This document shows, piece after piece, positions 13,031-61,848 of a stretch of DNA of 64,000 nucleotides. The position numbers and the translations under genes were made by a program. Origin of the DNA: Parietichytrium sp. I65-24A (Eukaryota > Sar > Bigyra > Thraustochytrida > Thraustochytriidae); NCBI GenBank assembly GCA_012862575.1, contig BLSF01000004.1:744001-808000 (forward strand), read 5' to 3'. The notes under the pieces were generated by a model. The model was not told where the DNA came from. It saw only the letters and a program-made list of their open reading frames with translations, and did no database searches. Position 1 is the first letter of the stretch; every line of letters begins with the position of its first letter.

Positions 13031-13058
13031 CTCACTCACTCACTCACTCACTCACTCA
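13031..13058. repeat. (CTCA)7 microsatellite
   Basis: Seven perfect tandem copies of CTCA, about 630 bases upstream of the giant gene's ATG, followed by a C/T-rich stretch to about 13200. It is probably length-polymorphic. Confidence 0.9.
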
Positions 13059-13385: not shown

Positions 13386-13423
<38 letters not shown>

Positions 13424-13613
13424 TGGTGTGTGGTGTGAGAGTGAGAGTGAGAGAGAGTGAGAGAGTGAGAGAGTGGGTGTGAGAGAGAGGGCGAAGGTGC
13501 CCCTCAGGCGCTGCAACATAGCGCGCTGAGGTGAGTGAGTTTGTGAGTGGGAAGGCCAGGCGCTGCAACATAGCGCGGTGGCCGCTGGCGGAGAGAGAGA
13601 GAGAGAGAGAGAG
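13321..13613. repeat. GA/GTGA microsatellite cluster in the leader of the giant gene
   Basis: Purine runs on the + strand: (AG)9 at 13321-13338, (GA)n at 13388-13417, mixed GTGA/GAGA at about 13430-13490, and (GA)n at 13591-13613. They alternate with the hairpin copies. Such tracts can act as GAGA-type promoter elements or exclude nucleosomes; here that is inference. Minus-strand Ser-Leu frames across this region are artefacts of the repeat. Confidence 0.9.
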
Positions 13614-13692: not shown

Positions 13693-13755
13693 ATGGCAGG
13701 GCTGGCGAGCAAGCTGGCGTGGCTGGCGCTGTGCGTGGCTGGCGCGGCGATGGGC
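13693..13755 (+). other. Signal peptide of the giant protein
   Basis: The basic residue Lys7 is followed by a hydrophobic core LAWLALCVAGAA. A plausible cleavage site lies after AMG, before ERAEQP. This directs the protein into the secretory pathway. Confidence 0.85.
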
Positions 13756-16700
13756 GAGAGGGCCGAGCAGCCGACGAACGTGGAACTGTTCGTGCAGTCC
13801 GCGCAGAGCCTGGGCGTGCGGTGGGACGCGCCGACGTGGGACGGCGGTAGCGAAGTGACTAGCTACCGCGTGATGTGGGACACGGACGCGGGACGGCGCG
13901 AGGTGCAGGTGGTCAAGACGGACGTGGCGCTGGGCCCGAACGAAGTGCAGGAGGTGACCTCCTCTGCGACGCACGTGGACGAGGTGCAGGTGGTGCACAC
14001 AACCGCAGACACGGTGCGCGAGGTGCAGTCGGTGTCCACCGTAGAGTCGGTGGGCGTGAGCGGTGGGTGGTTCACGGTTACTCTGGACACGAGCTCCAGG
14101 GGAGGCGGCGTGCACACGTCCGGGTTTATTATGTATAACGCGGAGGCGGAGGGTTCCGACCACGCGTCTATGCAAGAGATTATTGAGGCCATGCCCAATG
14201 TGGAAGGGTCTGTGAGTGTCACCAGGACGGCCACCGATAACGGGCGGTACACGTGGCTCGTGACATTCTCCGGGATGGACGGCAACGTGCCGCTGATGAG
14301 CATCGGGACCATGTCCCTTGAGGGCACCAATCCCCAGGTGACTTTCGATACCGAGCAGGATGGTAACGAAATCGGTGGGACTTTTGCCCTCACATACGCG
14401 GGCGACCGTACAGAGGATTTGGCGTTTGATGCCTCTGATGCGGAGGTCAAGAGCGCGCTCGAACTTCTCCCTTCCATTGGCGAAGTGGAGGTCGTGCGCA
14501 GCGAGCCAGACGGGGAGAATGGGTTTCAGTGGACCATCACCTTCCTCTCTGATATTAACGCTGGGGACATCGAAGCTCTCGGCAAAGTGAACGGTCTCAC
14601 CGGACAAGGGGCGGCTGTGACTGTATGCGCCGACGGGTCAACCACCAGCCCCTGCAGCGGTGTTTCCACGAGTGGAAATGAACTTGGTGGAACATTTGCT
14701 CTCATTTTCGATTCAGAGACGGCAAGTGATATCCCGTTCAATGCAACGGCTTCGGAGCTGAAAGATGCTCTAGAGGCGCTCTCAACTATCGAATCTGTTG
14801 ACGTTGAGGTTGTGAGCGGCCCAGACCGAAACAAAGGCATGACCTGGCGAATCACCTTCACGGGGGAGAGCAACATCGGGCTGCAGTCTCTATTTGAATC
14901 TGACTCGAGCACCTTGTCCGGCGACGGCGCATTGCTCACAGCTCGAAAAATTCACAACGGAACATATCAGCATGTTTTTGAGGTGGAAACTGCGGCAAGC
15001 GCTGCTGGCGACATAGTCAAGGTCGTTTTTGATGGAGAAGAGTCCACGACGCAAGTAGAACTATACGACTCGTGCGACAACGTGGCAGAAAGCATCAAAA
15101 CCGCTCTCGAGGGCCTAACGTCGGTGGGCAAAGTTGGAGTGGAGGTCACTGCGAGTGCCTCTTATAGCTGCACCATACAAGTTCGCTTTGTCACCAACGC
15201 GGGCGATTTGAGCTCCAAACTAAGCTCCACAACAGTTGGAGGTAGCGGTACTTTCACTGTATCAGACTCAATTCAGGGCAGCTCATCCCCTCTTGGGGGA
15301 TCCTTGGCGCTGACGTACCAGGGACAGAGGACCGGCTATCTTTCACACTCTGCTTCTGCACAGCAGATGAAGGATGCGTTGGAAGCGCTGGATGCAATTG
15401 GCATCGTAGAGGTGGTGCGTAGTGATCCTGACGAGAATGGTGGCTATGAGTGGACGATAACTTTCGCCACTGATGTGGTTGGTCCAGATGGATCTGGGGA
15501 CCTTCCTTTGATCTTGATAGACGCAAGTGCGATGACCGGTACTCGCGCGGATTTTGCATGCAGTGTCTCAGAGCACACATCCGGCCGCGCCCCGTACTTC
15601 AACTCGTCTGGAATGTCCGCCTATGTGACCGACCTTTCCTCCCTGGAATACCTCATTCCAAATCTTGCACAGGGAGTAGCTTATTACGTCGCTGTAAGCG
15701 CGACGAATGACAACGGCGAAGGGGAACTCGCAGTGAGCCTTCCTCCCTTTCAGGAGCCCCAAAATGTGCCACCTTCGGCACCTAGAAATGCCACTCTATC
15801 GGTATTGGATGGGTCAACACTCCGCGTGAGTTTTGACGACCCTGAGGTCCTTGGCGGGGGAGACTTGGAGTCTTTCAGAGTGGAGTGGGACACAGTCGAC
15901 CTCGTGCAGGAAATTCAAACTATCAGGATGGATATTCCTCACGAGGAAGCCGTTCAAACAATCTCTACTTCGGTCTCCGGCACAGCCGCAGACGAAGTAC
16001 AAGCGATCATGGTACTCCCTACTACGGCAGTGTCCAGTGAAGTGGAGGTACAGAATGTCACCTGCGATGCCAGCGGCGGATCCTTTCGTCTTACATTTAA
16101 TGGTGCAAAGACAAATCCGATTTCGTGGGACGCGGATGCCCTTGATATCAAAGAAGCTCTGGAAGACCTTGTGACGATCAACGAAGTTGTTGTCGTAATT
16201 GGTGATGGGCAGTTGACTGCGTGTCGACAGTACGAGGTGTTGGGTGCTGTGGAACCGGAAGCAGTTCAGATCACCTTCACTTCTGTACCTCAATTTAAAG
16301 GAGCTTTGCCGTTGTTGGAGGCGGATGTTGAGGGACTTGAAGGGAACAAAAGAATCTCTGTTGCTGTGGATACGCCAGGAGCAGCAAGCGTTTCGGGATC
16401 TTTTAAACTCCGGTTCGGTGGCGTCGACACTGACGAGATCTCGATTGATTCCGATGCGACTGCGATGAAAAACGCGCTGGAAGCGCTCACCTCGATCGGG
16501 GTAGGCAATATCCAGGTCACCTCGCCGTCCTCGTATGTGTGGCTTGTGACGTTCAGTTCAGACGCTCTGGACGGATCGCTACCGGCTTTTCAGGTCGCAA
16601 GCACCGCAAATCTGTTCGGAAACGATGCAAGAGTGACCATCTGTTCCAAAGGGGAAACCGTGGGAGATTGTACTTCTATTGGGTCGTCGACAGTTGATGG

Positions 16701-19700
16701 AGCCGCAGTGCGCGGAACTTTCTCCCTCACGCTTCGCGGGCACGAGACTGCGCAGATAGACTACAACGCGGATGAAGAAGCATTCAAGACTGCTATTGAG
16801 CAGTTGCCAAACGTTGGCACTGTGAGTGTATCGCGCTCTGGCCCCACTGCACCTGGAAGCACCTACTCTTGGACCGTCACCTTTCTTACGAACCCTGGCT
16901 CCTTTCCAAAGCCTTCTTTCAGTCAAGGCGAGTTCACCGCAGACATTTCGGCCCTAACGTGCACAAGCGCAACTAACGAGGCGGATGTCTCAATTGCCAC
17001 TGTCGCTGCTGGAAGTGATCCTTTAAGTGGATCGTTTACTTTGACTGTAGGGGTCGAAACGACAGATGAACTTCCCTCGACCGCCTCCGCGACACAGGTC
17101 CAGGATGCCTTGGAGGCGCTCGCAACCGTTGGGCGTGTGCAGGTCGAGCGCACTGTTGACGAGGACCTTGGGACATGGATTGAATGGGCAGTGACCTTTA
17201 GCGCCTGCCGAGGAAACCCTCTCTCTGCAACCCATATCTGCAACATCGGAAATGTCGATTTGATGACCTACGACGAAACCAACCTTGGAGCGTCTGCTCA
17301 GCTGAGCGTCATCAAGACTCGGGCCGGAACTGGCTCTGCAAACTATCAGAGCACAGAGCTATATGATCTTTCTTCTGGTGCACCGTATACTGTTGACCTT
17401 ACAAACTTGGATCGCCAGCAGGCTTACTACGTGAGAGTCTCTGCGAAAACTGCTTGCTTTGAAACTTGTCCCGGATGCTGCTCCTATGGTGCTTTTGTTG
17501 CTACCACTCCAAAGTTTGCTCAGCCAACTTTCGGCATCCCAGGCGCTCCAAGCGCTCCGATGCTGAGATCATCTTCGGCAGACTCGCTAGTGTTGGAATG
17601 GTCTCATCCGACACAAACTGGCGGCTCTCCAATCACAGGTTATGAGCTTTGGATGGACGAATGGGCGGCAGGGTCCTACGTTCTCATATTCGATGGAACT
17701 GGATACGAAACGACTACAGCATTTGACACTGCCTCCAAGATGACACTTTCGGCTGGACGCAAGTACCGTTTCAAGGTTCGAGCTATCAACGCAATCGGTT
17801 TTGGTGAATTTTCCCCAGAAGTCATTTTCGTGGCAAGATCAGCCGCAACTGTCCCGGCGGCTCCCCTGCAACCTTTGAAAGCTGTGGCGTCGACGAGTGC
17901 GAGCCAAGCACAAATTGTGTGGGCTGCCCCAGCGGACAATGGTGGCTCGCGAATTACGGGCTATGAAATCTACAGGGACGATGGGCTTGGGGGCGACTTT
18001 TCCGGCCCCATCGTGTTTGGATCTCTAGCAACCCAGACTTTGTCTGTTCCTTTGAGTTGGTCCGGTACCTTCAAATTGTCGTACAACTCGGTCGCGTCCA
18101 GCACTCTCTCGGAGACCTCCACTGCCGAGGAATACATTGCGGCCATAGAGACAATCAGCGATATCGGGAAGGTAAAGGTGGCGATCACGAATGACGCAAG
18201 CGAACAGAAGGTCGCTATCACCTTCTTGACTTTGCATGGCGAAATCGAAGGACTCGAAATAAGTGATGCGACGTCTGCTGGGCTTTCCATAGTCATGACT
18301 GAAAGCGGCGGTGGTGACCCCGCTGTGCAGCAGATATCTGTCGCATGTGGCAGTGGCTCACTTACCAGTGGGAGCTTTTCCCTGAGCCTTTCGAGCGGAC
18401 CGTTGAGCAGTCAGACAACTTCGAATGGAGTGACATCGTTGCCCTTGGTAGCCTCCCTTTCGTTCGACGACGATGCTGACGATATGAAAGATGCTTTGAA
18501 CACTGCATTTTCTGCAGCCAATGGAGGCGAGCTTGAGTTTATTGTGGAGAGACGTGCCACGACTACTGGGTTCGACATCTATGTCGTTTTTAGCTCTGGC
18601 TTCGTACCGAGAGGCCAGGACGGGCTTCCACTCTTTGACGTCTACCAGAATGCGCTCCAATGCTCAACCTCCTCGCAGCCCCAAGTGTCTGTGACAAGTC
18701 TTGTTTCCGGAAGCCTGTCCCATCGCACGCAAGGTGTCAACGCGGGAAAGTATTTCAGGTACTACGTCAGAGCCGTCAATTCAATTGGAAAGTCTCCGCG
18801 ATCCCCAATGATCTCTGTACTTACTGCTGACGCCCCGGGCAAAGTAAATCAGCCATCGGTTAGTGATGTCACTTCCAACTCAATTGAAATTGAGTGGAAT
18901 GTGCCGTCTTCGACCAATGGCTCCCCAATCACTGGATACAGGGTGTATCAGTTTTCCGCGATCGCTCTGAACACCGTCTCGCAACCAGAGCCTGTTGTCC
19001 ACGAGGTCCAAACGATCACAGTGACTTCGGATGCTGTCGTGTCGGAAATCCAGCGCGTCACCTTGACGAACGCAGCCAGCGGTAGCTTTAGGCTCAGCAT
19101 TGCTGGAGAACAGACCTCGAGCATTGCGTACAATGCAAGCCCAGAGGATTTGCGAGTCGCCTTGGCTGCCTTGTCAAGCGTTTCGTCCAACGCTGATCCA
19201 AGTGTGAGCGTGACGGTGTCGGGAAGCGCTCCGGAGTGGGATATCACCTTCTCTGCGAAGGCGGGCGACGTGGAAGCTCTGTACGTCGACATAGACGAAA
19301 TCACTGGTACCTCGAAGGGATCTACCGTCGCAGAGGTCGTTAAGGGAGTTGCGCCACTGAGTGGCGACTTCACGATCTCTTATAAAGGCGCTGAGAGCGG
19401 ACATATTCCATTTGATGCTTCTGAAGGTGAGATGGAAGAATTTTTGCGTCAACTTTCGACTGTTGGCGTCGTTTCTGTGAGCCGTTCCACTGTGGCACTG
19501 CCACGAGCTGGATACAAATGGGATGTGACATTTCTCAGCAATGTAGGTGACCTTCCTTTGATGAGCGCAACCTCTGGACGTTTACATAGTGTTCGATACA
19601 ACTATGTGCCTGGTGCAAATGATAACAATAACGCAGCTGTGGTTGTGCAGGAGACGCAAGCTGGAACTCCGGCAACTCTTGTTTATGATGGGTTTGATGA

Positions 19701-22700
19701 GCCATCCGTTTTAAAATTTACCGCCACTGGGCTTGTTACCGGCGAAACCTATGCTTTCCAGGTAGCAGCTCTGAATGCTGCCGGCGAAGGCTCTTCGTCC
19801 TCCGCAACGTTGACTGTGATTGCGCGGGAAGGAGCGTCTCCTTTGACTACAACTGCCATCGGCTCCGCATTGTCGAAAGGTCTCTCCGGGGTTGTGAATG
19901 AGGAGCAGCATATCATGGTCTACAGCGCAGACCCGTCTTTGTGGAGTTCAAGTGAATATCTTAATTTTCGCGTTGGGGGCTCAACTGCTGAAACGAGCGA
20001 CGACTTTCATCCTAGAGATGATGATGCTTCTCGTCTAGAGCTTTTGCTTCAAAATCTGGCAGATGCCTCGGGCCGCTCGGTCGGATCCGTTCACGTGACC
20101 AAGTCTTCCCTAGACATGAGTGGCTTGGAGTCTGGCTATCTCTTTGCAGTCACTTTCCTGGGCGCGCATGGCGACATGGATATGATCGAAGTGGATGTCG
20201 AAGGAGGTCTGTCCTCGCTAAATAGCTCGGTGTCTGTAGACATTGTCGAACATGTGAAGGGCTTTGCAAATCAGTTCGTCATTGAACCAAAGAAAATGAC
20301 AGGCACGCCGGTGAAAGATGTGGACGCTTTCTCGGGCTTTGAAGGGGCGGATACTTTCTTCACAGAGTTGTGGACCTCAGACAAAAGCATCGTTGATGGT
20401 ACACATATATGGAGCACCGATGGCGGTGTTGCACGGTATCTACCAGTCCGCTACGACATTCAGGTCATTGAAACTTCTGGAGACGTAACTGGTGGCACAT
20501 TCAAATTGTCACTAGATATGTCACCATATTCTCAGGACACTTTCGGACAATCTGGCGCCATTCCGTACGATGCAGATGGGCTTGCCATGAAAGAAGCGCT
20601 TGAGGCCCTCGATGGCATTGTATCAGTTGACGTGACCGCTGAAGATCTGGGAAACAATCTACGCAAGTGGACCGTGACTTTTACTGGCGACTTTGGGCCA
20701 CTTCCTGTTCTCGAGCCAGAGTCTGCGCTTTCGGGCACCTCGACTCAGATCGCTGTTAAAAAGCTCCAGAGCGGCACGACTGAAGTGCAAACGGTAACAA
20801 TCTCCAGTACAGAATCTTTCCAGGCAGAGGAGCAGGTCATAAAAATAGATGCCAGCACTGATTCGGGGACCTTCGAAGTTACTTTTCGGGACGTCAACGA
20901 CGTAATCTCCGTTGATTTCGATGCCACTGCTGCTGAACTTGAGGCTGAGCTCGAAAAGCTTGAAAATATCGTGGATGTCAGCGTGTCTGGCAGCAGCCCA
21001 ACTTGGACTGTCACGTTCGTGGATCCTTTTGGAGATGTTCCAGAGCTTTCGGTCGCAGATATTGACCTTTCTTGCGGTGGCTCGGCCTGTGCTGCTGATG
21101 TAGAAGTTGAGGAGGTTTCGAAGGGGTATTCTCCTCTGAAGGGTACCTTTGTGCTGTCTTTTCAGGGCGAATTTACAGACAGCATTGCCTATGACGCAAG
21201 TGCGTCAACAATGAAAGAGAGACTTGAAAACCTTGCATCTGTTCAGCGCGTGGGTGTTTCACGTGAGAACCTGAACTCTGGTTTTCGCTGGACGGTAACA
21301 TTTGTGCGTAGCTTAGGTGATCTGGAATCCATGATCGCTTTACCAGAAAGGCATCAAATTGTACACATCGAGACACTTGGCGGAGATCCGACACCTTTGG
21401 ACGGGGTTTTCACGATTTCTGTCGACGATGAGAGCACGTCAATGCTTGCATCTGACGCAAGCCCTTCGAGCGTGAAAGCTGCTCTTGAAAGCCTCTCGAC
21501 TGTCCACCATCAAGTAACCGTTTCTCGAGAGGGTCCGCTTGACAAATTCGGGAGATTCCGATGGCTCGTCACCTTTCGGGGCGATATTGTCACCGTGTCA
21601 GCGGACTCGACAGCCTTGACTGGCTCTAACGCTCAGATCGACGTGGTGGAAGTTCAGTCCGGTTCTGCAAATGCACTGGAGGATAGTAGCTCTGCCGAGC
21701 TCGTTGTAGAAGAGAAGGTGGCGGGGCTTCCACATTACGTTGGGAGTTACACTCCTAGTGCAGTTGGGGATTATACTCTAGCCGTCCGTCAGCTGACGAA
21801 GGGCGGTCTCCTTGCAGACTATTTTGATAATCAATGGCTCTCTGGCACCCCAAGCTTGTCTCGGGTCGAAGAAGTCTTGGACTTTGACTGGGGCACGGGT
21901 ACTATCACAACCTTCGGTCGTGACTTTGTTTCCGCTCGATTTCAGGGTAAACTTCTTGGTCCAAGTAACGAGAACTTCACCTTCTACCTGAGCGTGAATG
22001 ACGGGGCGAAAATTTGGATTGATCACGAGCTTGTGATTGATGCTTGGGAAGCTAACGTTGATGGCGAACCAAGCGCAGAGTATCGCGTCACAAATGTTCT
22101 GCTGGAGAAGGGTAACTTTCACGATATCAAGATTGAATATCGCGAACTCACGGCTCAAGCATCACTGAAGTTGCAATGGTCCTCGTTCAGCCTCCCGCGT
22201 CAGACAATTTCTTCCAAATATTTACATCGTGCAGAACACATTGTTGGTTCGCCGTTCGCAATCAATGTTGTTCCTGGGGCCGCGGACTACCCGTACTCTA
22301 ATGCATTCGGGCCTGGCCTGGCAAGCACTGGGGTTCGTGCGGGCATTCCAACAGAGTTCTGGGTGCAAAGCTGCGATGCTACTGGCAACAATCGCACTAG
22401 CGACAACGAACTCGGCGAGGAGCAGTTTGAGGCCGAGTTGAGCGATTCCTCGAATTTGGCCATCTCTCTGGAGTACGTTGGGGAGGGACTTTACCACGCC
22501 CGCTATACTCCAATGGTAAGCGGGAGCTTCCCATTGGCAATCAAGACAATGGCAGGCACCGATATTTACTGTGGCCTTGGCGCTGCCAATAAGTGCTCGC
22601 CGTTTGTCGTCAATGTTAGCCCTGGACCAACTTCCCATCAGACAACTGATGCGACCGGGAACGGGCTGAGTAGTGCAACCGCTGGGGTAGTCTCTTCTTT

Positions 22701-46700: not shown

Positions 46701-49700
46701 GACCGTCTCCTCTGTCGACGTTGAGCGCTCTGTCAATGGGTTTGGATATGACTGGCGAGTAACATTTACCGGAACCTCCGGCCCTGCAGGAGTACTTTCA
46801 GTGGACTACAGTCAACTGACCGGTTCAAGCGCCAGTGCTACGGTGTCTCAGGTGCGCACTGGAGTCTTGCCCTCACAGTATGACTCTGCGATTGTATCGT
46901 TGGCCTCGGAGGGTACATTTTCTTACGACATCGTTGGACTTTTGCAAGGCTCGAGCTATGTCGCTCGAGTAATCGCGGTGAATGCAGAGGGCCGTGGTCC
47001 CACAAGTCTGGTTTCGGGCGCAGTGACTCCATCCGGGGTGCCAGGGAAACCAACGTCGGTATCGCTAATGTCGTTGAGTAACACTCAAATCAAGGTGGTG
47101 TGGTCGGAACCTGTGGACAACGGTGGCTTGCCGGTGGAAGCGTATCGAGTGGAGTGGGATGTCGTCGAAAGCTTTGCAAACATCGGCACTTCTAACTATT
47201 ACTACACCTATGTGCCGACTTCTTCTACGGGGCCATACTTCTACAACATTCTTCTGACGACTACCCATTCATACTTTGTGAGAGTGCGAGCTGTAAATGC
47301 TCGTGGGAACGGAGAATTTCAGACGAGTTCGCCAACAAGCGCAAAGCCCATGTACTTGACCCCAGGGCCACCAGAGTCTGCATCCTTGGAAGTTTTGAGC
47401 GGCATCCAACTTCGTGTGCAATGGACTGCACCAAACCCTGACCTAACTGTGTACGGTGGCAACGGTGGCAAGCCAATTACAGGCTACTTGGTCGAGTGGG
47501 ACACTGACTTTGCCTCTTCACCAACGTCGCAGTACGCGACAGTGAGCGGCTCGACTTATTCTTACACCATTGGGGAGCGAAACATCTTGACCGGCGATTC
47601 TTCCTCTCCTCTGCAGGAAGGCGAGGAATATCAAGTCCGTGTGACGGCAATAAGTGCGCAAGGATACGGGCCATCTCGTCTTACCACGCCCTCAAGTGCC
47701 GTGACAGCAGACGTCGTGCCCGACAGGCCACGAAACTTGCAAACTCAAGTTGCTTCTGAAACCTCGATCCTGCTGTCGTGGGACCTTCCAGAGAGCGATG
47801 GTGGCAGGGCTCTCGAAAGCATCACCGTCGAATGGGATCCAAATGAGAACTTTGACTCTCTGCAAACCATCGAGATCAGCTCTCAGTCTTCTATGACTGG
47901 TTCCTCCGGTTCCTACCGATTGACCTTCGGGAGTTTGTCGAGTAACGACTGCATCGACTGGGATGCTAGCGCGGAGGAACTTGAACAATTCCTTGAGTCG
48001 CAATTCGGAAACGCAATTGTAGATGTTCTGGTGACCTTGGCAGAGGACAACACTGACTATGTCAACGCTAAAATTGTTCAGTTTTTGAATCCAGTGGCTC
48101 CAGAGTTTGTTTTGGAGATCGCAGAAAATCAGAACAGTTGCACCACTCCACTCCCGGGAGATATGAGTATCGGAGGGGCTAGCATCGGAAGCGCTACGAT
48201 CCCTATCTTGCACGAATCGCAGGTTATCGCTACCGTTGCCGATGTAGTGAACGATGTGCAGACCATTACCGCTTCTGTGCTTGTTATCAATGAGCAGCAA
48301 ACTATCACCTCCAGTGTCGTTGGAGTCGATGAGGTTCAAACGATTACTACGACTGCGGACACTGTGCTGCCTGAAATACAGACTCTTTCTATCTCAACTC
48401 CGGACGTTGATGAAGAGCAAGTTGTGACTGTCTTTGCTTCCGTCGAGAACGAAATTCAGAGCATCTTGACGTGGGCAACTCACCGCGACGAGGTCCAGCG
48501 TATTTACATTAGCGCCACTGAAGAGGATGAAGTTCAGGTTCTCACACTAACGGAACCACGCATAACGCAGACCGTCACCGTGTCTGCGACAAGCGCGATT
48601 GATGATACTAAGGAAGTGCAGAGACTCAAGGTGTTTGATGTTCTGCAAACTCAGGTTCTCACTGCCGAGTCCGTAACTGCCTTCAGCGCCACAACCATTC
48701 AGGCTGTGCAGAGAATCACCATTTCTGGAAATACTGACCACTCCGGCTGGACCGGGAATGTGCAGCTAACCCTCGACAATTCGGACACGAGTTCTGGGGT
48801 GGGCACCCTTTTGGAAACGGAGACCTCTGAATCTGTATCATTTGCCGTCCAAGAGACTGACGATACTGCACTGACCAGTACAGTCAGCGGTCTTGCACAG
48901 CTTGTTACGTATGGCGTAACCGTCTCGCGCGTCTCGCAGACTTCTCAGACGTTGCAGTACGTTATTACATTTGCAGTGGAGTACGGTAATGTCCCAGAAT
49001 TTACTGTTGACCTTTCCGCGCTCTCCGGAGCGTCAAGCCCAAGCAGTGTGGTCTCTACAGTTACGGAAGGCCAGTATCCAGCATTTAAAGTGGGCTATGG
49101 CGGCAGTTGGAGCAACTGTGTGAGATATGATGACGACACGAGTCTTCAGGCTGCCATAGGTGGCCTTGGGCTGACCTCCACCGTCACACCAGCGCCTGGT
49201 ACTAATATAGTGACACACACTGTCACGGCTGGCGGAAGCCCGACTGCCCTAAGTGTGGACGCCTCTGGTTGTTCACCTCCAAGCGGCTTCACTGTCGCTT
49301 CTGACCCATCAAACGTAGGCGGAAGCTTTACACTGTCGTTCGATAGCACTACATCATGTAACTTTTGTGGGGTGTCTGGCGATCATACGACAAGTGCAAT
49401 TAGCTACAATGCTGCCGCGACTGAGGTCAAGAGTGCGCTAGAAAATCTCGCCAACATCGATGAGGTCTCGGTCAGCCGCGAGGCGGATCCGGATGAAGAA
49501 AGCACTGTGTACCTCATCACATTTAGTGGAGCTGGTGTGCGAGGTGACCTTCCCATCCTATCATACACGTCGAGCTTGACTGGAGACTCTCCGGCTATTG
49601 AAATCGCAGAAGACACTCCCGGCTACGTCGCAGGGTTCAGATTTAAATACGGCTCCAGCACTGAGTCGAGATGTGTTGCTTGGGATGCGGAAGCTTCGGG

Positions 49701-52700
49701 AACTTCCGGTGCTTCATATAAAGAGATATTGGAGGACTCGATTACAGGAAGTTCGGTGAATGTTAATCAGGATTCATTCAGCGATTCTGCAGCCAAGTAT
49801 ACGTTTACATTTGTATCTCCCGCCAGTCCAGACGCATTGAGTCTCTCAGCGACTCCCTGCGTGACAGCAGTAACTTGCAGCGGCGGAGGCTCATGTGGTA
49901 CGGACCCAATTTTAGTCAGTTCAACTAACTTGGATGGCTCTTTTCAGCTCAATGTCAACACCAACGATTGCAACCTTTGTACGACGAAATCGGCAGGAGG
50001 CACGGACCCTATTGACCTCTCCGATCCGAACAACCTTCAGACGGAACTTAACAAGATACTTGACCTGAGTGTGACTGTGTCACACGAGCAGCACACCGGC
50101 ACGAGTGGTGAGGGTTACACCTGGAGTATCACGTTTTCGGGGGCAAGTGTGGAAGGCAATATGCCCGATGATATGTTCACAATTGCGTCGCAGAATGTGC
50201 AAGGTGATGATCCGCAGCTGACGCTAACGACTGTACAGCAGGGCAACGAGATCGATCCCACTGCAACCTTCAAACTCGTTATTAACCATGGAGGCTCCAC
50301 AATTGAGATTCAGGACATTGAAGTTCAAGCCCCAGCTTCAGGATCGACAGGCGTGTCAGTGGCAGAGAAGCTGATGAGCTCTGGCCTCGAGAGTCCGATT
50401 GCGGTAGTGAAGAACTCCCTGAGTGATGGTGCTGGTGGCATTGAGTTTCTCGTAACTTTCCAGGGAACGTCAGGAACTATGGACCTGCTCTCATGCACTT
50501 CTCAGGCAAGCGACCTGAAGGTGAATGACGCAGTTCGCGGAGAATCCTCAGGTAATGGCTTGGAGTGTGACACCGAACAGATCGAGGCCGCAAATGTATT
50601 GGGCGGATCCTTTGATGTTTCGTTCGGCGGTGAAATTGCAACTATCGATCTCTCTGACGACGAAGCAGCGGTCAAGGTTGTCTTAGAGGGCCTGAGCACC
50701 ATCGGAGAGGTCTCAGTCACCAAGACGGAGTTTTGGACCGACGAGGATACTGATAGCTGGACCGGAGGTTACAATTTCACCATTGAGTTTTTAGATGGTC
50801 ACGGGAACGTGGAGGAGTTGTTGATCGATGACTATTCAGGGCTGACCGAGACTAACGATGGAGGCTCTCCCTCGGCTACAGCTGACGTTTTTGTTTTGCG
50901 GCATGGAAATGTTCTTGGCGGCAAATACAAACTGGCGTTCCAAGCGAGAGGTTCCACGGTGTTGGAGAATACCGATTTTATCGATTGGAACGCAACTCAG
51001 GAGGAGATGGAGAGCGCTCTCATGGCTCTTACATCGATCGACGAGGTCTCCGTCACTCGTTCCTCAGAAACTCGGTCAGGCGGGTCTTCATACACCATCA
51101 CATTTGATGGTTCTGGTGTTGGTGGAAATGTTGCAGAGTTGGTGGTTCCCGAATCCTGCAAGAACGTTCAGCTTTTGAGTCTGAAAGCCGGTAAGGATAT
51201 TACCGGCGGCACTTTGAAAATAAACTATGATGGTTCGAGTTCTAGCTGCTTTTCTTGGAAGGCCAGTCTAGATGTGGTCGAAGCAGCGTTCCAAAGTGTC
51301 ACCGGGTCGAGCTCTGTTTTCGTAGAGAGATCTGGAGATGCCTCCTCGGGCTCTGATTACGGCTATGACTACACAATTCGTTTCAATGATGCAAATGAGG
51401 TCCCGTCTGTATCTTTTACCGCTGAAGTCTGCGATGCCATCGCCTGTGTAGGTGGAAGCTGTGATGAGCAAATGGGATTCACCGATATTGGTGCATGCGG
51501 CGAATTGCTCACAGGAAACGGGGCTGGTTTTCAGATCTCCACCGTGACCATCGGAAACGAGGTCGCCTCAGGAAGTTCCTTTTTCGTTTCATACGGAAGT
51601 GTGGATGGCGCTGCTCTGCAGCCTGATATCTCCGACTCTGACTTTGCCGATGCCCTGGAGCAGCACAGTATGTTTGGCGCAGTTGATGTCACGCGAAGCT
51701 TCACCGGGTCGGATGGCAACCAGACCTTATCATACACCTGGACGATCACATTTTCTAACGGAGCGATCCACGATGGAACAGATCACGGCAACGATGAATG
51801 GCCTTCGGGAATCTCGAAAGCCTGGGGGATCAATGCCGGAGATATCAGCGACATTACCTGCGTCAGCTCGCTGACGGCTACAAGTGCTGGAATGGTTGTT
51901 GATTGCGATGTTGCAGAGCTTCGCCAGGGATACACTCCACTCGGCGGGTACTTTACAATCACGTTGGACTCGACCGCGTCTGACTTCATGTACAGCAAGG
52001 TCTCCGCTACATCTGGCGCAATTAGACACAACGCTCCTGATTCTGCCGCGGCTGCCTACACCTCCTCGCGCTTTGGCGAATCTGTGGAAGAGATCCTGGA
52101 GGCTATGGAGAACATCGGAGACGTTACTGTTAGTCGGAGCGCTGTTGACACTGACAATGGCGCATATGTTTGGAGCATTACTTTTGTTAGTGATGTCTGT
52201 ACCACAGATGTCATTTGCTTGAGTGCTGGTGATGTCCCGGACCTTGTACCGAATTATGGATCTCTGGAGGGCAACAATCGAAACGCCGCGGTGAGCGAGG
52301 TCCACAAAGGTAACATCCTTCGAGGCACCTTTAAGGTGCAGCTCAGTGGCCAATACTCCATTCCAATCTCTTGGGATGCATCTGGGGACGTCATGAAGAG
52401 CGCTTTGGAGGGTCTTTCCACAATTGGTCAGGTAGATGTAGCAAGCTCTCGTGTGGACAAGTATGGGTCCCGGACATGGCAAATCACATACACCGAGAAT
52501 GTCGGACAAACCCCGCCAGGCTCTGGTGACATTGCTGAGCTAAACGTCGATCCTGGCTTTATGTTTGAAACCGCGGGCACATCTACGTCGGTTTTTGACG
52601 TTGTGGAAACCCAGAAAGGATCCCTCGGAATGAGTGGAACGTTCGAAATCTCCCTCCCAGACGTTGCACCTTCTGTTCACATTCTCGATTTCGATGAGAG

Positions 52701-55700
52701 CGCAGCTGAGCTGCAACGCAAACTGAACGAGATTCACTCTGCTGTTCGAGTGAAAGTGACCAGATCTGTCTACCCTGATGTGCAAGCAGGCGGGTGGGGT
52801 AGCGCCTCGGTGCTCTCCACAGGAGAACGCGGGGGTTACCAGTGGCAAATCACGTTTCTTGGAAACCAGGGCGTCTTCAACGGGGAGAGCTGGCCACCGG
52901 GGTCTGGAGACGTCCAAAACTTGGTGTCCACATACTCTGGAACTCTGCTAGGCAACGGGGTGGATGTCGCGGTCTCTGAAACCAGCAAAGGCTCGACACC
53001 TTTGGATGGAAAATTCACTCTGTCGTTCGACGGCTCTTCCACCGATGCACTATCTTACGTTATCAGTGCTGTGGACCTTGAGACACAGCTCGAATATTTG
53101 GATTCTATTGGCGATGTTTCTGTCTATAGAAGCTTGGCAATGATGGAGGAACTACCTGGGTCAGTCAGTCTCGACACAAAGAGCGGATACATTACTGCTA
53201 CTACTGATATTCTCGGAGCTGTCAAACGTGGCGACTTGATTCGAATCGGCGGTGGCGACGGCGCAGACATGAGCAGTACGACATCCCTTGGTATTACCGG
53301 AGACCTGGTCGTGTCGGAAGGAACTGCAAAAGTTGTCAAAGGTAGCTCTACAGTGTCCACAAGTACCAACTTGAGGCCATACATTGCAGAGGGCGATTTT
53401 GTCAGGATCGATAGCGACGTATATGAGATCATTAGCACTGGAGTTGAAGTACAGACAATTAAAGCTGAATCTACTGACGGCTCGTTTCGGGTGCAATACA
53501 TTGATGAGAAATCTGACTGTGTCGCTTTTGACGCAACTGAGGCTCAGATGAAGAGCGCCATCGAAGGAATCTCGGATATCGATGAAGTATACGTTCACCG
53601 CACCAAGATTTCGGGCGGCTATGAGTTTGCGATTTATTTTGTAGGCAGCAATTTTGTTGGCGACATCCCAATGCTCGGCGCAGTAAAGGATACCTGTTCA
53701 GGAACTGGAACCTACAGCGTTTCACAGACACAGGCAGGCGATGGGTCAAACGTCTTGACACTTGACCGCAACTTCGTTGGAGAGAGCAACGACGCTTCGT
53801 TAATCTATGCCTTGGCTCCTGTTTTCGCAGTGCTTGGAGAGAAAACGGAGGTGCAGACAATCACCGTCAGGACAGCACTGGGAACCGGCTCTTTCACAGC
53901 TGGAACGTTCAAATTGTCGTACGGTGGGTCTGATAGCTCTTGCATGGCCTATGACGTTACTGAAGCCAACTTACAGGATGCGGTTCGGGATCTTGTCGGC
54001 GGGAAGGAGATTGTGGTGTCCCGCGCATTGTACAGTGAGACTTACCCTGGTGCAGGTTACGTTTTCACCGTGTACTTTGTGGACGTCACGTCGCCGTCAC
54101 CCCTTGGCATCACCGAATGTGCCACTTTTGCTCCAGATGAGACTCTGGATGTAACTGTGAAGACTGCATTCGACAGTACCTTGAGCGATGCAGTCCATCG
54201 CGAAATCCAAGAAGTGGTGGTTACTGACGAACGCAAGCTGCAGAGCTTTGTTATTCAGGTGGAGGACGTTTCAATCGCCCAAGATGCCTCTATCGCTTTG
54301 AGCTACGATGGGGGCAGTTCAGTCTGCATTCCATGGGACGCAGACGAAGCAACTGTCAAATCAGCGCTTGAAACTATAACCAACGGTCTCACTCTTAGTG
54401 TCACCAGAGTCGCAGATGCTTCTACGGGGAAGATCACCTATGCAGTTGAATTTGATGCTGATAACAGCATCTACCCATTTGAATTTGCATCATCCGTAAC
54501 ATGCCTGTCGACCAATAGGGTGCACTACGACGTGTTCCCGAACAGCTTTTCTTCGGGAATGACTTTGACGTTTGATACCAGTTCAGGATGCGCGATGTGT
54601 GATACGCTAGGCTCATACACTACTTTGGCGATTGACCCGACCCTTGAGACGGGGCCAGAATCCCTCAAAGAGCGTCTTTGGTCTTTGGCAAATGTCGGGA
54701 TGTACAACGTTGAGGTGGATTTTAGTGGACCGTCAACGAGCGCAACGCAGCAAGTCTATACCTGGAGCATAACATTCACAGGAAACTCTGTTCGTGGAAA
54801 CGTGCCAGAGCTTATTGCCTCCATCACAGGGGTGCCTGATTCTACTAGAGCGACAGTTTCCGTGTCCACAATTGTGGAGGGCAATGCGGATAGAGTTTAC
54901 CTAGGGACCGTCAACCGTGTCAGCGGCGAGGTAGTGAGCGGCAATTCTGGAACACCAGCAACCTACTTGGGCTGGAGAAAGACTGAGCAAAAGGTCTACA
55001 AAGTCTCAGGCCACAAGTGGAGGGTGAACTTTGGTAGCAATTTGGGTGACTTGGCATTGCTTTCCTACGATGTGTCTGCGCTGAAGGGTTCAGCGGCAAC
55101 TGTGGTTGCCGCCGAAGCTCTGAAGGGAGTGTTGCCGGACAGATACACGGTCACCGGTTTGAGTTCGGGGCTCTACTATTGGTTCAGGGTTGCCCTAGAG
55201 AACGAGCTTGGGCTGGGTTCATTCAGCACGAGTAACCCAAAAGACCGAGCCCGTGGCGTCACTTCCGCACCGCGCCTCCTGGAAGCTACCCATACTCTTC
55301 ATGTGGATGAGATTCAGAGCGTGACCGTGTCTGCCTCTCACATTGATGAAATTCAAACCATCACAACTTCGTGCTCTGACTTCAAGGAGATCCAAACAAT
55401 TCGAACCATAGCTGGTGGCGCCACACCAATTTCTGACGGACTACTCGAGCTTTCCTTTACTGGGCTTCTCGAAGGCAACGTAGTGTCCATCAGCACTTCG
55501 GATGAGAAGCGGGTGATCAGGCAGCAGAGAAGTGCCGGATTCGCAACTCCAGAATCAGGTGGCTTTAAGCTGAAGTATGGCACGTCATCAGAGTCAGCAT
55601 GTCTAAACCATGACGCAGATGCTACGGAGGTGCAGGATGCAATCGTGGCCATCAGCTCTGAGACTGCGATCGTATCGAGAAAATGGGTGGAGAGCGACGC

Positions 55701-58700
55701 GGGTTACACCTGGACGGTGGTCTTCCCTGATGCTGCATCCGTGGATACGTTGGTGGTAGTCGAAGGCCCAGACGATTCGTCACCGTGCAAAGACTGGACT
55801 CCCGCAGCTTCCAGTACGTACAGTATGTCAACGTCTACGCTCGACACTGTTGGGTTGGACCTGGCTTACGACATGAGCGCGGCGGATCTTAAAACCGAGC
55901 TTGAGAAGATACCCCTGATCACCGAAGTGGAGACTTCTCGCAGCCTTGCAGATAGCGGCAACGGCTATATTTGGACTGTCGCCTTTTTGCAAGATGCGGG
56001 CAACCTAGAGCAGATGACTTGCACTCCGGATGTTGACTTTGTTAATGGGGTGAATTCATGTGAGGTGACGACTATCTCTGACGGCAATGAGCTTGGCGGC
56101 TTCTTTTCAATCATCTTCGATGGGGAGCGTACGGAGAATATTGCATACGATGCCACTGCGGATGACGTGCGCGATGCGATTCAGAGCCTTGGCAGTGGAA
56201 GCGAACACGTTGTACTCGTAACGAAAACGGTGGTGGACGAAAGGACGCACTCCTACACGTGGTCCGTCACCTTCACGTCGGATATCGGAGACTTGGGTTC
56301 CATGACCGCTGTCAATTCGCTGACTGGCGCAGGATCTTCGATTTCGATTGTAGAGGAGCAGAAAGGCAACTGGCTCAGTGGATCCTTCACATTGAGTTTC
56401 GAAGGGTCCACAACTGGTGATATTGCCTACGATGCTTCGAGCGAAGATATGCAAGATGCTTTGGAGGCGCTGAGTACTGTTTACAGTGTCGAGGTTTCGA
56501 GTTCTAGCACCGACTCCGAGAGAGGCAAGAGTTGGTATGTCACATTTACATCTCCATCCAACGGTGGGGATTTGGAGCTTATGAGTGGCTCAGCGTCCCG
56601 GCTAAGCGGAGAAGGTAAAGTGGTCCTGATTCAGGAGGTTCAGAAGGGTGCTGAAGCCACTGGAACAAAAGCAACGCTTTCATTCGCGGCGCCAGAGACG
56701 GACGGTGGAGAACCGGTTTCGTCTTACCGAGTTGAGATTGATACCTCGAACACGTTCGACTCTACCAATCTTCAATGGACTGACATCGACAGCTCCGAGC
56801 TATTGTACCGTAATCAGCAGGTTGTGGTTGACGCAACTCCTGAGCCCGAGGTCCAGAAGGTGGTCATCACGGTTCCCTCGAAGATTCAGGAGCTTTCTAT
56901 TGATGATTCGGCGACTGGAGAGTTCATCCTTTCGTACAATGATCGTCCAACCGCATGCATTGACGCATCGACTCTTACTGAAGCAAGTTTGGAAAGTGCA
57001 GTTGAAGCCGCTATTTTGACATACGACGCATCAATGACCGACGCAATCAGTGCTATCACAGTCTCAACGGATAACGGGGTGGATACTTACTCAATCACCT
57101 TCAGCGCAAGCTCGGATATCTACCAACTCAAATTGCAGGGTTCCGGCACCTCCGCTGGCTGCTCGACTGATTTGAGTCCTGCTGACCCTGTTATCCAGCC
57201 ATCGCCTCTGGAAGGCGATTTCACCTTGTCTCTGGATACCTCCAGTGGATGCAATCTGTGCTTTTCGCAAGTTGATGCCGGAGCGACAATCGATATTGCT
57301 GCTGGCTCCGACGCTGCGACTGTTCAGGCCGCTCTTGAAGGCCTTGAAAACGTGGGGCTTGGAGGAGTCTCAGTGACTGTTGAACAGCACTCTGGATCCG
57401 ACGGCCACGGTATGACATATTCGATCACATTTGTGGGAGGCGCCGTGCGTGGAAATATTCCAGAAATGACAATCACTTCATCTCTTGTAGGTAACGGTAA
57501 CACTCCAGACGCAACGATCGCTACGGTTAAGAATGGAGAGGAGCTGTCCGGAACGTTCTCCCTCATCTACGGAGAAGAGCAGACAGGGCTCCTCGCTTAT
57601 TCGGCATCTTCTGCAGAAGTGAGGGATACTCTGGAAGCTTTGGACTCGATCGCCACCGCTCACGTGAGCCGCAGTGTGGCATTAGTTGAGATTGATGGGA
57701 TCACTGTCAGCTTTGTTCATGGCACGTCCAAATTGACGGCAAGTTCTTCGGTGGCTGGCTTGCTCCATAGAGGTGATACAATTTTTGTCAATGGGGAAGA
57801 GTTCAAGGTTGCTCTATCTGGCACGTTTGATGGGACAAGTATACCGCTGGGACTACCATCAGATTACACAATCAACAAGGTCATTTCTCAAACCACCAAT
57901 AGTGGCTTGGCGCTGTACAAGCAGGGTGCCGGCTATTCTTACTCCATAACTATTGAGCTGGCAGAGGGCGGGGCGGTACCAACTCCGATCAGAGCAGCTC
58001 GCAGCGCATTGGCCCCTGTAAGCTCGAAAATTTCCGTCTATGGAGGGCAATCGTTTACCCTGGATTCAGATATGAGCACGCATGTTGGATGCGACTCGTG
58101 CCTCTACTTGAGTGATCTTCAGGCAGGGTCAACTTACTACGTTCGTGTTCTTGCGCGAAATGAAGTCGGATCCTCAGTTTACTCAGAGATCATGTCATTG
58201 GTTCCTAAGCAACTGCCGTCTGCTCCGGAGAGTGTTTACCTGAGCACGACTTCTAGTATCGCTGTTCTGGTGGAGTTTGACCCTCCAACTTCAGATGGAG
58301 GGGATGCTGTTATCCGCTATGTTGTTGAAGTTGACACTTCTGAAGACTTTGACACTGCGAACAAGGTCACACAGTACGTGGAGCAAGAGTCTCTGACGGG
58401 CTCCCCTCCATACTCTACATTTGTGACCAACCTAGCTGAAAATACCAAGTACTACGCTCGAATTGCCGCTATCAACACCGTTGAAGCGCAGCAGGTTGAC
58501 CCTGTGAGTGTGGCACCATATTTTGGCTTCAACACCAACTGGCAGACCTCGACCCCGGCTTATGTGGTCACGGCTGACCAAGTTCCGCTTGCGCCATTCG
58601 ACGTTGAAGTGTCCTACGTCTCTGGTTCCGTTCTACGCGTCATTACAACAAGCCCAGAACGTGACGGGGGAGTTGGGTTGAGCAAGCTCAAAATTGAATG

Positions 58701-61700
58701 GGATCCTTCCGCAACGTTCCAGAGCTTGGACGGTACTCTGCCGTTCTGCAGCACCGTGCAAGTCATTGAAGGGAACGACAGACTTCGAGTGTTCTCGAAA
58801 ACTCCTCTTCGCTGGAGTTTTGACATTGGACGAGGCGACGATATCATCCACGCTTCAACAGGCGTAGAGTGCGATCCTCTGGAAGTTGGCGTCCCATACT
58901 ATGTTCGAGTCGCCGCATACAACGGGGTAGGGGAGTCTGGATACGGGGACTACTACACGACAGTCGTGCCAGTGGCACCGATCCAGAGTCCAGGGGCCAT
59001 CACCAGTCTCGAAGTTGAGTCGGACCTGGAGAGAGAGACCCCGATCGACTCGCTGAACGTTGCATGGACTGCTGCGACAGATGATGGCGGAAGCCGCATT
59101 ACTTCTTACAGAGTGGAGTGGGCCCAACTAGACACACCAATCTATGAAGTCCAGTCGATCACGCTGGTGAGCAACATTGCAGGTGAGCTGGAAGGGGAGT
59201 TTGATCTCTTCTTCGGGGGCAGTAGTGCGGTTAATATTCCGTACGACGCCTCTCCTGAAGACCTTCGTTACAAGCTTATGGAGATGTCCAACATTGATCA
59301 TGTCGAAGTGAAGCGAACCCAGATTGGCCATGAGCTTCAAGGGTACCGCTGGGATGTAACCTTCAAAAACCAAACCTCGAATGAAGGCGCACTTCCAAGA
59401 ATGCTAATTAATCCTCCGGTGTCAAGTGGCACTGCGTCGTACAGTGCTTACGTACGCGTGAGCACCCGAGGCTCTCGAGCTGGCGGGATGAACGAGGTTC
59501 AAGTCGTTGAAACGTCTGCCTCTGGTTCAGCTGAAATCGGAGGGTTTTTCCGCCTCTCACTGAGTGGAAACTACTCTTCGTACATTGCATACAACGCTGA
59601 GGCAGAGGAGGTCCGCGATGCCTTGCAAGGGCTTCCATCTGTCGGACTAGTGGAAGTGACTCGCTCTGGTCCGCTTACGACTGGTGTTGAGGACTACAGC
59701 TGGACTATCACCTTTTTAACTCCTGGCTCGTTGGACTCCTTTGATATTCCAGAGCTTGGTGTAGATTCCGCTCTCTTCACTTCCAGCGACGAGATCACTG
59801 CGTCTGTCACGGTGCAGGACGGCGACCTTGCGCTCAAAAATGCTGAGAGTGCTGCTCCGACGCAAGGAGACAGCGAGCTGGCATGCGACAGTTGCGTGAT
59901 CGGAGAGACCCCTCTTTCGTTTGGCTATGCCGAGGTGGATTCGACCGAAACAACTTTTGAAATCACAGGGCTCACACCAGGGGAGCAGTATTATGTTCGC
60001 GTGCTCGCAGGTAATGAGCTCGGATACGGTGTCGAGTCTAGCTGGGAAGCCGCAACTCCAGTCCTCCAGGTCCCAACGCCCCCACAAAACGTTGCCCTGT
60101 CTGTTGTGGATGGTGACTCCACCTCACTCTACATATCGTTCGACGCCTCAAGCAGCGACGGTGGATCCGAGATCAAGCAGTATGCCATCCAGTACAGTCT
60201 GGACTCTGCGTTCGGAACCTACGACTCTATTAACTATAGGTGCCCGAACTTTCCGGTGAAGGAGGTGATTACTGTGGAGACACAGTCGGCAGTTGAATTT
60301 TCCTTGACACTGGCCTACAACGGCGTGACTGTCTCCAACGGCGTGACTGGCGTGACTCCCTCCGAAATTCGAACTTTGAAGAGTGACGCAATGGCAATTT
60401 CCTCCGAGGAAACGGAGAATGACGAGGTGTATTGCCAAAGCAATGCGTGCGACAAGTCCCACGGGTCCATGCAAAGTTACTTGAACGTCCTCGCTCGCAA
60501 GCTCGGGCTGGATAGCGGCGTTAGCGTGTCTCGGTCTGACGGTGTGTCTGCGGGTCTATATATATGGACTGTGACTTTTCTTGACGATGTGCAGGAAATC
60601 GATCTGCAGAGTCCTACTTCGGGGGTGTCCATCACTCGCCAGACCACTGGGGCCACATACGGAGAGTGCGTCGGTACTCACAAGCTTGAGAGTCTACAGG
60701 ATGGGGAGCTCTACTATGCGCGCGCGTTCGCAATGAATGCAGTCGGGTACAGTGCAGCAGGGAATGCTCCATCCGCGGTGGCGCCAGTTCGGGTTCCTGA
60801 TCCACCACAAGATTTAAGTCTTGACGTGGTAAGCGGTACGAGTTTGCGCGCAGTCTTCAGTCCTGGTGACACTGGTGGCTCGGCTATCACTTCGTTTGTG
60901 GTTCAGTATGCGCTAGACAGCGGCTTCACTTCAGGTGTGCAGTCCAAAGAACTCAACTACCTTGAAGGTGGTGCTCCATTCAGCTTGACGCTCACGCAGC
61001 TCCAGCAGGGAACGCGATACTACGTTCGTGTCGCGGCTGTCAACGCCCAAGGAAGGGGCGCATGGGAGGTGACTTCACCTGCGTCGGAAGTTCCGATGTC
61101 GGTGCCAAATTCCCCAACGAACGTGCGCCTCTTGATTACGAGCAGTTCCATGCTCACAATCGCATGGGATGAACCCACTTCAACAGGTGGCGGCGACATC
61201 ACCATGTACAAGGTGGAGTGGGACAGCGATGCAAACTTTCAGTCCGCGCAAACCGCGCCATATCGTGACTCGGCAGAAGTGGAAGCGTCCAAGCACCGCT
61301 CTTTTACTGTCGAAAATCAGAAGCCCGGGGTAGCAGTGTTCGTTCGCGTCTTTGCCAAGAATGCGGTGGGATATGGAAGCGCGTCTGCTACCACCACTCG
61401 CTCGCCAAGCAATCAATTGCCTGGCAAGCCGTACAATGTCATTGCTGCAGCTGGGGGCTCTGGACAAATCCAAGTCACGTTTGAGCCACCGCACATTCCA
61501 AGCCACGGAGTGTCCTGCCAAGGTGGCGGGCCGAGCGCTACGGCAGCCGAAAGTTTGTGCCCGACGGGGATGGGAACTGATCACACATCTTGGGGCGAAG
61601 CTGACGGTGGTTCTGCTATCATCAAGTACGCTGTTGAGATTGACGTGGATCCATCATTCACTTCAACTGCAGCATACCCTCAGCGACAATCCGTCGATGT

Positions 61701-61848: not shown

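What the first reader, a model, noticed from the sequence alone, without database searches (positions are those of the whole stretch)
13693..61848. A 48-kb single-exon gene encoding a 16,051-residue secreted protein
The sequence shows one frame without a stop for 48,156 bases, starting with a signal peptide. Proteins above 10,000 residues are rare, and giant eukaryotic genes are usually split by many introns. Continuous selection must have kept this frame open. Its job must justify a large cost.
Basis: partly seen in the sequence, partly recalled or inferred. Interest (0 to 1): 0.85.

Follow-up and report, generated by a model that had tools for sequence, protein, structure and literature searches.

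The report
Giant secreted protein with phage-type domains
An unnamed eukaryote has an unbroken 48-kb gene for an enormous, probably secreted protein, built from fibronectin-like domains that carry scores of copies of a small domain otherwise seen here in the outer proteins of bacterial viruses and in giant proteins of planctomycete bacteria.

Summary
One ATG-to-stop frame of 16,051 codons fills 13693-61848. In 53 of 53 tiles of 900 nt it scores best of six frames, and it holds no exact direct repeat of 18 nt or more, so fusion or repeat misassembly is unlikely. It predicts a 1.69-MDa acidic protein with a signal-peptide-like start.

The unit is homologous to a domain of tailed-phage virion proteins (Bxb1 tail-tip gp23, profile E 4e-37; tail sheaths, tail tubes); a viral-only profile with silent controls and the predicted fold agree. 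It also occurs in planctomycete giants, one of 15,496 aa. 54 of 83 units lie between the two halves of FN3 domains. Other long frames of the genome (12,125; 7,821; 3,539 aa) carry units, with IPT/TIG or Ig domains in two.

Best reading: a giant adhesive or cell-coat protein with phage-type modules looped out of an FN3 chain. Architecture is shown; adhesion is inferred; the lineage is unresolved.

The parts
13693..61848 (+). single open frame, 16,051 aa plus stop; predicted 1,693 kDa, pI 4.3
13693..13755 (+). signal-peptide-like N-terminus (aa 1-21; its end judged by eye)
   Evidence: no signal-peptide program available
14053..15552 (+). first array of five phage-type units (aa 121-620), between the two halves of the first FN3 domain
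16066..17307 (+). second array, four units (aa 792-1205), between the halves of the second FN3 domain
20482..21642 (+). four units (aa 2264-2650) in the FN3-free stretch before the first PA14 domain
21802..22185 (+). PA14 domain (aa 2704-2831)
   Evidence: PF07691
22639..22917 (+). filamin-type repeat (aa 2983-3075), best of four in the first quarter
   Evidence: PF00630
27103..27387 (+). filamin-type repeat (aa 4471-4565), best of two in the second quarter
29326..29745 (+). PA14 domain (aa 5212-5351), best of two in the second quarter
30913..31491 (+). FN3 domain (aa 5741-5933) with one unit between its halves; aa 5738-5936 folded as model ma974dc1eb338
47896..55104 (+). largest run: 19 units between one FN3 first half and the next second half (aa 11402-13804)
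56359..56682 (+). best-scoring unit, query of model mb79687018c10 (pLDDT 90.1)
60790..61845 (+). C-terminal run of FN3 domains without units (aa 15700-16051); no membrane anchor seen at the end

Best explanation
It is a giant secreted extracellular protein of a eukaryotic microbe, most likely an adhesive or cell-coat (matrix) molecule. Shown: FN3 domains follow each other with very short linkers; arrays of a ~87-residue domain homologous to tailed-phage virion domains lie between the first (strands A-C) and second (strands E-G) half of many of them; PA14 and filamin-type domains add to the chain. Inferred: the protein is exported, the FN3 chain is the backbone, and the unit arrays loop out sideways as many weak binding modules, so that one molecule grips a surface or a neighbouring cell at many points. 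The unit is probably a module exchanged between prokaryotes or their phages and this lineage, then multiplied within a family of giant paralogues.
For: 83 units by an iterated profile trained on the protein itself, which gives 0 hits in 26 shuffled or reversed controls. A profile made from 46 viral units alone finds 65 hits, all 65 inside the 83 units, and none in the 26 controls. Profile of 35 units against PDB sequences: Bxb1 tail tip gp23 E 4.2e-37, capsid protein 1.4e-6, tail tube 2.7e-4. At E up to 0.1, 24 of 35 units hit PHROG 10909 (major tail protein) and 23 of 35 PHROG 2839 (tail sheath). Single-sequence tblastn: 257 phage records, best E 1e-5, 39% identity; the 30 records listed are tail sheath genes. 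AlphaFold2 model of the unit: pLDDT 90.1, pTM 0.81; the top five PDB fold matches are all Bxb1 chains; in the viral library the first match is a phage tail fibre protein, TM-score 0.78, rmsd 1.7, and of the first ten the four with a named function are tail proteins. Nesting: units lie in 17 of 32 intervals from a first to a second FN3 half but in 3 of 31 from a second to the next first half, Fisher p 3.1e-4; the model of one nested block matches single titin FN3 domains of 102-107 residues over 190-192 columns. The FN3, PA14, TIG and Ig company in this protein and its paralogues is that of extracellular proteins (general knowledge). Literature: FN3 proteins of Saprolegnia parasitica of 6,547, 9,440 and 5,297 aa are expressed more in cysts than in mycelium (PMC5771568, passages); an anti-fibronectin antibody stains the material between aggregated Phytophthora parasitica zoospores (PMC7409359, passages); Ig-like surface domains of mycobacteriophage Douge bind host glycans (PMC13033339, passages).
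Against: No expression, localisation or binding data. The lineage of the genome was not resolved, so the oomycete parallels are analogies: searches for elicitin and Crinkler found nothing, but their controls were silent too. The Phytophthora authors also write that aggregation may be mediated by still uncharacterised mechanisms. The glycan-binding phage domains of PMC13033339 are called Ig-like and were not shown to be this unit; what the unit does in phages is not known to me. No PDB fold match of the unit reaches E 0.001 (best 4.4e-3). For the nested block the best-ranked fold matches are two-domain or longer FN3 proteins at TM-score 0.20-0.24, and Bxb1 is not among the 50 listed. 29 of 83 units do not lie in a first-to-second-half interval, and 19 of the 54 that do lie in one interval of 2,427 residues where FN3 halves may have been missed. 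34% of the protein is covered by no model used here. The tree has few columns and SH-aLRT 90 for the eukaryotic side, so origin and direction of transfer stay open.
Confidence: 0.6

Rival explanations
1. It is a bulk storage or cargo glycoprotein of secretory vesicles (like the >400-kDa Lpv proteins of Phytophthora zoospores) rather than a working adhesive.
For: Very large glycoproteins are kept in the large peripheral vesicles of Phytophthora nicotianae zoospores and stay in vesicles inside the young cyst (PMC3869178, passages).
Against: Diversified units (35 of them at 28% mean pairwise identity) with surface-protein domains are more than a storage protein needs (inference); 33 N-glycosylation sequons in 16,051 aa are few. 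Lpv sequence could not be compared here.
Confidence: 0.12
2. It is a structural part of flagellar hairs (tubular mastigonemes) of a stramenopile-like zoospore.
For: Three chains of PDB 9ufe (OCM5, OCM6, 'Tubular mastigoneme protein') appear among 24 matches of the unit profile.
Against: Their E-values 0.23, 1.8 and 0.54 are chance level; 9ufe is not among the first 50 fold matches; lineage unresolved.
Confidence: 0.07
3. The frame is an artefactual fusion or a misassembly of several neighbouring genes.
For: Only that no RNA evidence is at hand and that the size is extreme.
Against: 53 of 53 tiles coding in the same frame, no exact direct repeat of 18 nt or more, no stop, FN3 halves pair along the length, long related frames elsewhere in the genome.
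Confidence: 0.03
4. The likeness of the units to phage domains is convergence of a small beta-alpha-beta fold, not common descent.
For: The unit is short, and unrelated small domains also give weak profile matches (E 0.03 and above).
Against: Single-query E 1e-5 to phages and 5e-7 to Streptomyces plasmids, profile E 4e-37, detection in both directions with silent controls, fold match.
Confidence: 0.03

Closest known systems
Giant FN3 proteins of Saprolegnia parasitica (SPRG_19863, SPRG_05384, SPRG_03974)
   Same: Very long (5,297-9,440 aa), predicted secreted, FN3 domains, from a microbial eukaryote (PMC5771568, passages)
   Different: Whether they hold the phage-type unit is untested here (sequences not held); smaller; lineage of this genome unresolved
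Mycobacteriophage Bxb1 tail-tip gp23 and other unit-bearing phage tail, sheath and capsid proteins
   Same: Same domain by profile, single-sequence search and fold; three significant units in gp23
   Different: Few copies on a phage particle; no giant secreted chain
Planctomycete giant proteins with the unit (G002:C1, 15,496-aa frame; Gemmataceae G001:C104, 4,782-aa frame)
   Same: Unit in very long frames
   Different: Bacterial; far fewer unit hits (12, several weak, and 3); nesting in FN3 not examined
Lpv proteins of Phytophthora large peripheral vesicles
   Same: Very large (>400 kDa) secretory-pathway glycoproteins of a zoosporic microbe (PMC3869178, passages)
   Different: Sequence not available here; no test of homology

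Membership tests
FN3 (Pfam PF00041) multi-domain extracellular proteins | Several FN3 domains above Pfam's cut-off | tested here: met
   fn3 scores 117, 302, 143 and 192 bits in the four quarters against a cut-off of 25; 34 first halves and 34 second halves by own profiles
FN3 (Pfam PF00041) multi-domain extracellular proteins | Contiguous seven-strand domain without a large insertion | tested here: not met
   Of 32 first-to-second-half intervals, 15 are short (13-51 aa) and without units, 17 carry units (16 of 109-619 aa and one of 2,427 aa): met for the 15, not met for the 17
Phage virion unit (Bxb1 gp23 type) | Sequence homology in both directions | tested here: met
Phage virion unit (Bxb1 gp23 type) | Same predicted fold | tested here: met
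   probability 1.00, E 4.4e-3; E 4e-5
Phage virion unit (Bxb1 gp23 type) | Part of a phage or prophage structural gene | tested here: not met
   Lies in a gene next to capping-enzyme and myosin genes; no phage gene among the six other ORFs scanned with Pfam
Saprolegnia-type FN3 giants | Orthology to SPRG proteins | not testable with these tools
   No eukaryotic protein collection is held
Saprolegnia-type FN3 giants | Oomycete host | tested here: inconclusive
   Eukaryotic SSU found; elicitin and Crinkler searches empty with silent controls; FabA empty with controls that ring in 9 of 14
Known Pfam or NCBIfam domain for the unit | A model matching most units | tested here: not met
   20 Pfam families each match 1 of 35 units, best E 0.011; two NCBIfam families match 1 of 35 each, best E 0.02
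Phytophthora Lpv proteins | Sequence relation to Lpv | not testable with these tools
   Lpv sequence not held; paper passages only

The most novel reading that the evidence does not exclude
A domain of tailed-phage virions was captured by a eukaryotic microbe, multiplied to scores of copies and threaded into the loops of FN3 domains, giving a family of giant secreted proteins that use phage surface-binding modules for the cell's own attachment, in parallel with planctomycete giants that use the same module.
Probability: 0.35. Interest if true: 0.82.

Novelty: new variant of a known kind. Interest (0 to 1): 0.63.

Why it matters
Giant secreted FN3 proteins of microbial eukaryotes have been listed by name but their function is open. 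Here a defined, testable module, without a Pfam or NCBIfam model, makes up much of one of them and ties it to phage surface proteins and to planctomycete giants. It gives a profile with which such giants can be recognised in other genomes, a small domain that can be made and assayed, and a concrete case of a module shared by viruses of bacteria, bacteria and a eukaryote.

Tried and rejected
Considered and dropped: bacterial contamination (eukaryotic capping-enzyme and myosin genes on the same 952-kb contig); repeat-inflated assembly; a POTRA domain for the unit (weak Pfam POTRA_1 hits; no entry described as POTRA among the 50 fold matches listed); the mastigoneme reading (weak hits only). Led nowhere: Rfam scan of the window (0 matches); promoter and terminator scan (no excess; a bacterial consensus anyway); viral-contig search with a giant segment (no match); prokaryote-genome search with one giant unit (0 relatives), after which a Streptomyces plasmid unit was used. 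Lineage: papers on labyrinthulomycetes were looked at for genome statistics (PMC10101102, passages) and proteins (PMC12221091, passages) without a match. The 3' end of the SSU gene could not be compared with any eukaryotic collection. Alignment A3 was worse than A2 on inspection and was not used. On print: my ten paper searches listed no title or abstract start describing this unit in a eukaryote; I saw listings only for most of these papers, and most subscription journals are not held.

Full report
Observation. The frame 13693-61848 is real: ATG to stop, 16,051 codons, no N. Codon use learned from four neighbouring ORFs prefers this frame in 53 of 53 tiles, synonymous codon use correlates at 0.957, and the frame contains no exact direct repeat of 18 nt or more and no ungapped repeat of 40 nt or more. 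The window is bases 744,001-808,000 of a 952,445-base contig in a 42.5-Mb genome of 172 contigs that holds eukaryotic small-subunit rRNA 3' ends. Upstream lie an mRNA capping enzyme and a myosin with a TH1 tail, also without visible introns. So the single exon is not odd in this stretch, and a bacterial contaminant is unlikely.

Composition. Pfam finds FN3 in all four quarters, and PA14 three times and filamin-type repeats six times in the first half. What fills much of the rest is a repeat of about 87 residues, running roughly G-T/S-F-x-L-S-F-x-G-x-x-T-x-x-I-x-x-D-A-S-A-x-x-x-K-x-A-L-E-x-L-x-x-I-x-x-V-x-V-x-R ... W-x-V-T-F. An iterated profile finds 83 copies at domain E 1e-3, a few of them partial, and none in 26 shuffled or reversed controls. 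Mean pairwise identity of 35 units is 28%, maximum 44%: old duplications, each copy diverged. No Pfam or NCBIfam model matches more than one of 35 units. The models used cover 66% of the protein.

What the unit is. A profile of 35 of the 83 units (alignment A1; full-length or nearly so, mostly the best-scoring) against all PDB sequences gives Bxb1 tail-tip gp23 at E 4.2e-37 with three stretches, Bxb1 capsid at 1.4e-6 and tail tube at 2.7e-4. Of 35 units scanned singly, at E up to 0.1, 24 match PHROG 10909 (major tail protein) and 23 PHROG 2839 (tail sheath). One unit by tblastn finds 257 phage records, best E 1e-5; the 30 listed are tail sheath genes. Another finds 14 records at E up to 0.1, best 1e-3. 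A 523-aa segment finds five Streptomyces plasmids, best E 5e-7; in the one I looked at, pCQ3, the gene lies just before a major capsid gene. A profile built only from 46 viral units finds 65 places in the giant, all within the 83, and none in the 26 controls; the viral units had been located with the giant's profile in loci fetched through the Streptomyces unit, so the two sets were not collected wholly independently. The unit folds with pLDDT 90.1. Foldseek's first five PDB matches are Bxb1 chains with probability 1.00 (four) and 0.98 (one), but E is 4.4e-3 to 0.14 and none reaches 0.001; in the viral library six reach 0.001, the first being a tail fibre protein at E 4e-5 with TM-score 0.78. 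Common descent is as good as shown.

Where else. Prokaryote genomes: 12 loci relate to the Streptomyces unit, nine of them actinobacterial, two planctomycete, one Methylopila. Viral contigs: 80 loci kept of 85. Of these 92 loci, 91 show a unit with the giant's profile; the one without is the Methylopila locus L036, whose genome also gave no match with A1, while the two planctomycetes and the Actinoplanes did (3 of 4). Drawn genomes of the planctomycete's phylum: 10 of 199 with a match, often several per frame, in frames up to 15,496 aa; of the actinobacterium's phylum: 6 of 198, one match each, one of them in a 7,448-aa frame and one borderline at E 9.7e-4. The 15,496-aa planctomycete frame holds 12 unit hits, several weak.

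Nesting. Separate profiles for the first (strands A-C) and second (strands E-G) half of FN3 find 34 and 34 copies; on the 26 controls the first-half profile gives 2 hits at the limit used (1e-2) and none at 1e-3, the second-half profile none. They alternate with four exceptions. From a second half to the next first half, where no unit intervenes, the linker is 0-4 residues in 23 of 28 cases (the others -1, 18, 20, 28 and 38); from a first to a second half it is 13-51 residues (15 cases), or, where units intervene, 109-619 residues (16 cases) and once 2,427. Units occur in 17 of 32 first-to-second intervals and in 3 of 31 second-to-first intervals (Fisher p 3.1e-4; the four irregular intervals, with 9 units, left out). 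Summed from that list, 54 of 83 units lie in first-to-second intervals, 19 of them in the single 2,427-residue one where FN3 halves may have been missed; 20 lie in second-to-first intervals: 15 in the 3,328-residue stretch with the PA14 and filamin domains, four before aa 14,312 and one single. So many arrays, though not all, are loops of FN3 domains. A 199-residue block predicted from 35 window sequences (pLDDT 80.7, pTM 0.68) matches single titin FN3 domains of 102-107 residues over 190-192 columns with TM-score 0.59-0.64 by target, as expected if two halves close around an insert; but the best-ranked matches are two-domain or longer FN3 proteins at TM-score near 0.2, Bxb1 is not among the 50 listed, and in the alignment used the unit's last strand was partly matched to the FN3 strand E. 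This supports but does not prove the closure.

Family. The same genome has further open frames that match. Units were verified by profile in four: 12,125 aa (C45; 14 unit hits in the 20 kb I read, 15 IPT/TIG stretches), 7,821 aa (C27; four in the 10 kb read, no Pfam domain), 3,539 aa (C62; three, with Ig and PKD domains in the part read) and 1,645 aa (C32; two, no Pfam domain). Frames of 2,624 (C20), 1,823 (C13), 765 and 758 aa (C8) matched the search only and were not read. A quick tree of 84 units (28 of 35 non-redundant units of this protein, 14 of 15 of paralogues, 26 viral, 16 of 25 planctomycete) puts the 42 eukaryotic units on one side of a branch with SH-aLRT 90, while phage and planctomycete units are interleaved. 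With 102 columns, 52 of 81 inner branches open and warnings of long branches, mostly among paralogue units, this favours, but does not establish, one origin.

Function. Secretion rests on the signal-like start; I saw no membrane anchor at the C-terminus. The company of FN3, PA14, TIG and Ig domains is that of extracellular proteins (general knowledge). In Saprolegnia, FN3 proteins of 5,297-9,440 aa are higher in cysts than in mycelium (PMC5771568, passages); in Phytophthora parasitica anti-fibronectin staining marks the material between aggregated zoospores and the authors hypothesise that proteins with many FN3 repeats mediate cell-to-cell adhesion, while also allowing uncharacterised mechanisms (PMC7409359, passages). 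In mycobacteriophage Douge, Ig-like domains displayed on capsid and tail bind host glycans (PMC13033339, passages). These are parallels, not tests. I therefore propose a giant adhesive or coat protein in which FN3 is the chain and unit arrays are side loops that bind. Which ligand, which life stage and which lineage are open. Elicitin and Crinkler searches of the genome were empty but their controls were silent; FabA was empty with controls ringing in 9 of 14 genomes, which speaks against a plastid-type fatty acid synthase (inference; the search does not bridge introns).

Verdict. Known kind: giant secreted FN3 protein. New: the dominating module is a phage virion domain without a Pfam or NCBIfam model, often nested in FN3 domains and shared with planctomycete giants.

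Noticed in passing
window 1-1950 (+): mRNA capping guanylyltransferase and cap (guanine-N7) methyltransferase domains in one frame (open at the window's edge): a fused capping enzyme.
   Followed up: no
G002:C1, loci L131-L134: Planctomycete frame of 15,496 aa with 12 unit hits, several weak, nearly as long as the eukaryotic giant.
   Followed up: partly
G299:C45:31113-31403: Frame of 7,448 aa with one unit match (E 1.8e-6) in a genome of the actinobacterial phylum.
   Followed up: no
L022:4782-5513 (plasmid pCQ3, Streptomyces sp. W9): The unit-bearing gene lies directly before a major capsid gene: the plasmid looks like a phage-plasmid.
   Followed up: no
PDB 9ufe chains EA, BA, FA: Three tubular-mastigoneme chains appear among weak matches of the unit profile (E 0.23-1.8); a possible remote relation or chance.
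   Followed up: partly
L144:1-1977 and L142: Contig C16 ends in an SSU rRNA 3' end next to what reads by eye as a copia-like reverse-transcriptase/RNase H frame (not searched); C61 holds a partial SSU 3' end that diverges after the conserved stretch.
   Followed up: no
upstream of units: An EVQTV-like strand before the unit is seen in 100 of 121 prokaryotic or viral units, 18 of 83 giant units and 101 of 2000 random 20-mers of the giant; the prokaryotic set was fetched partly by that motif.
   Followed up: partly
window 13031-13058, 13388-13489: CTCA tandem and a 100-bp GA-rich run just before the giant gene.
   Followed up: no
window 62904-63998 (+), 63945-63986: An open frame without Pfam match downstream, running off the window, with AGAACC-type tandem repeats near the edge.
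   Followed up: no
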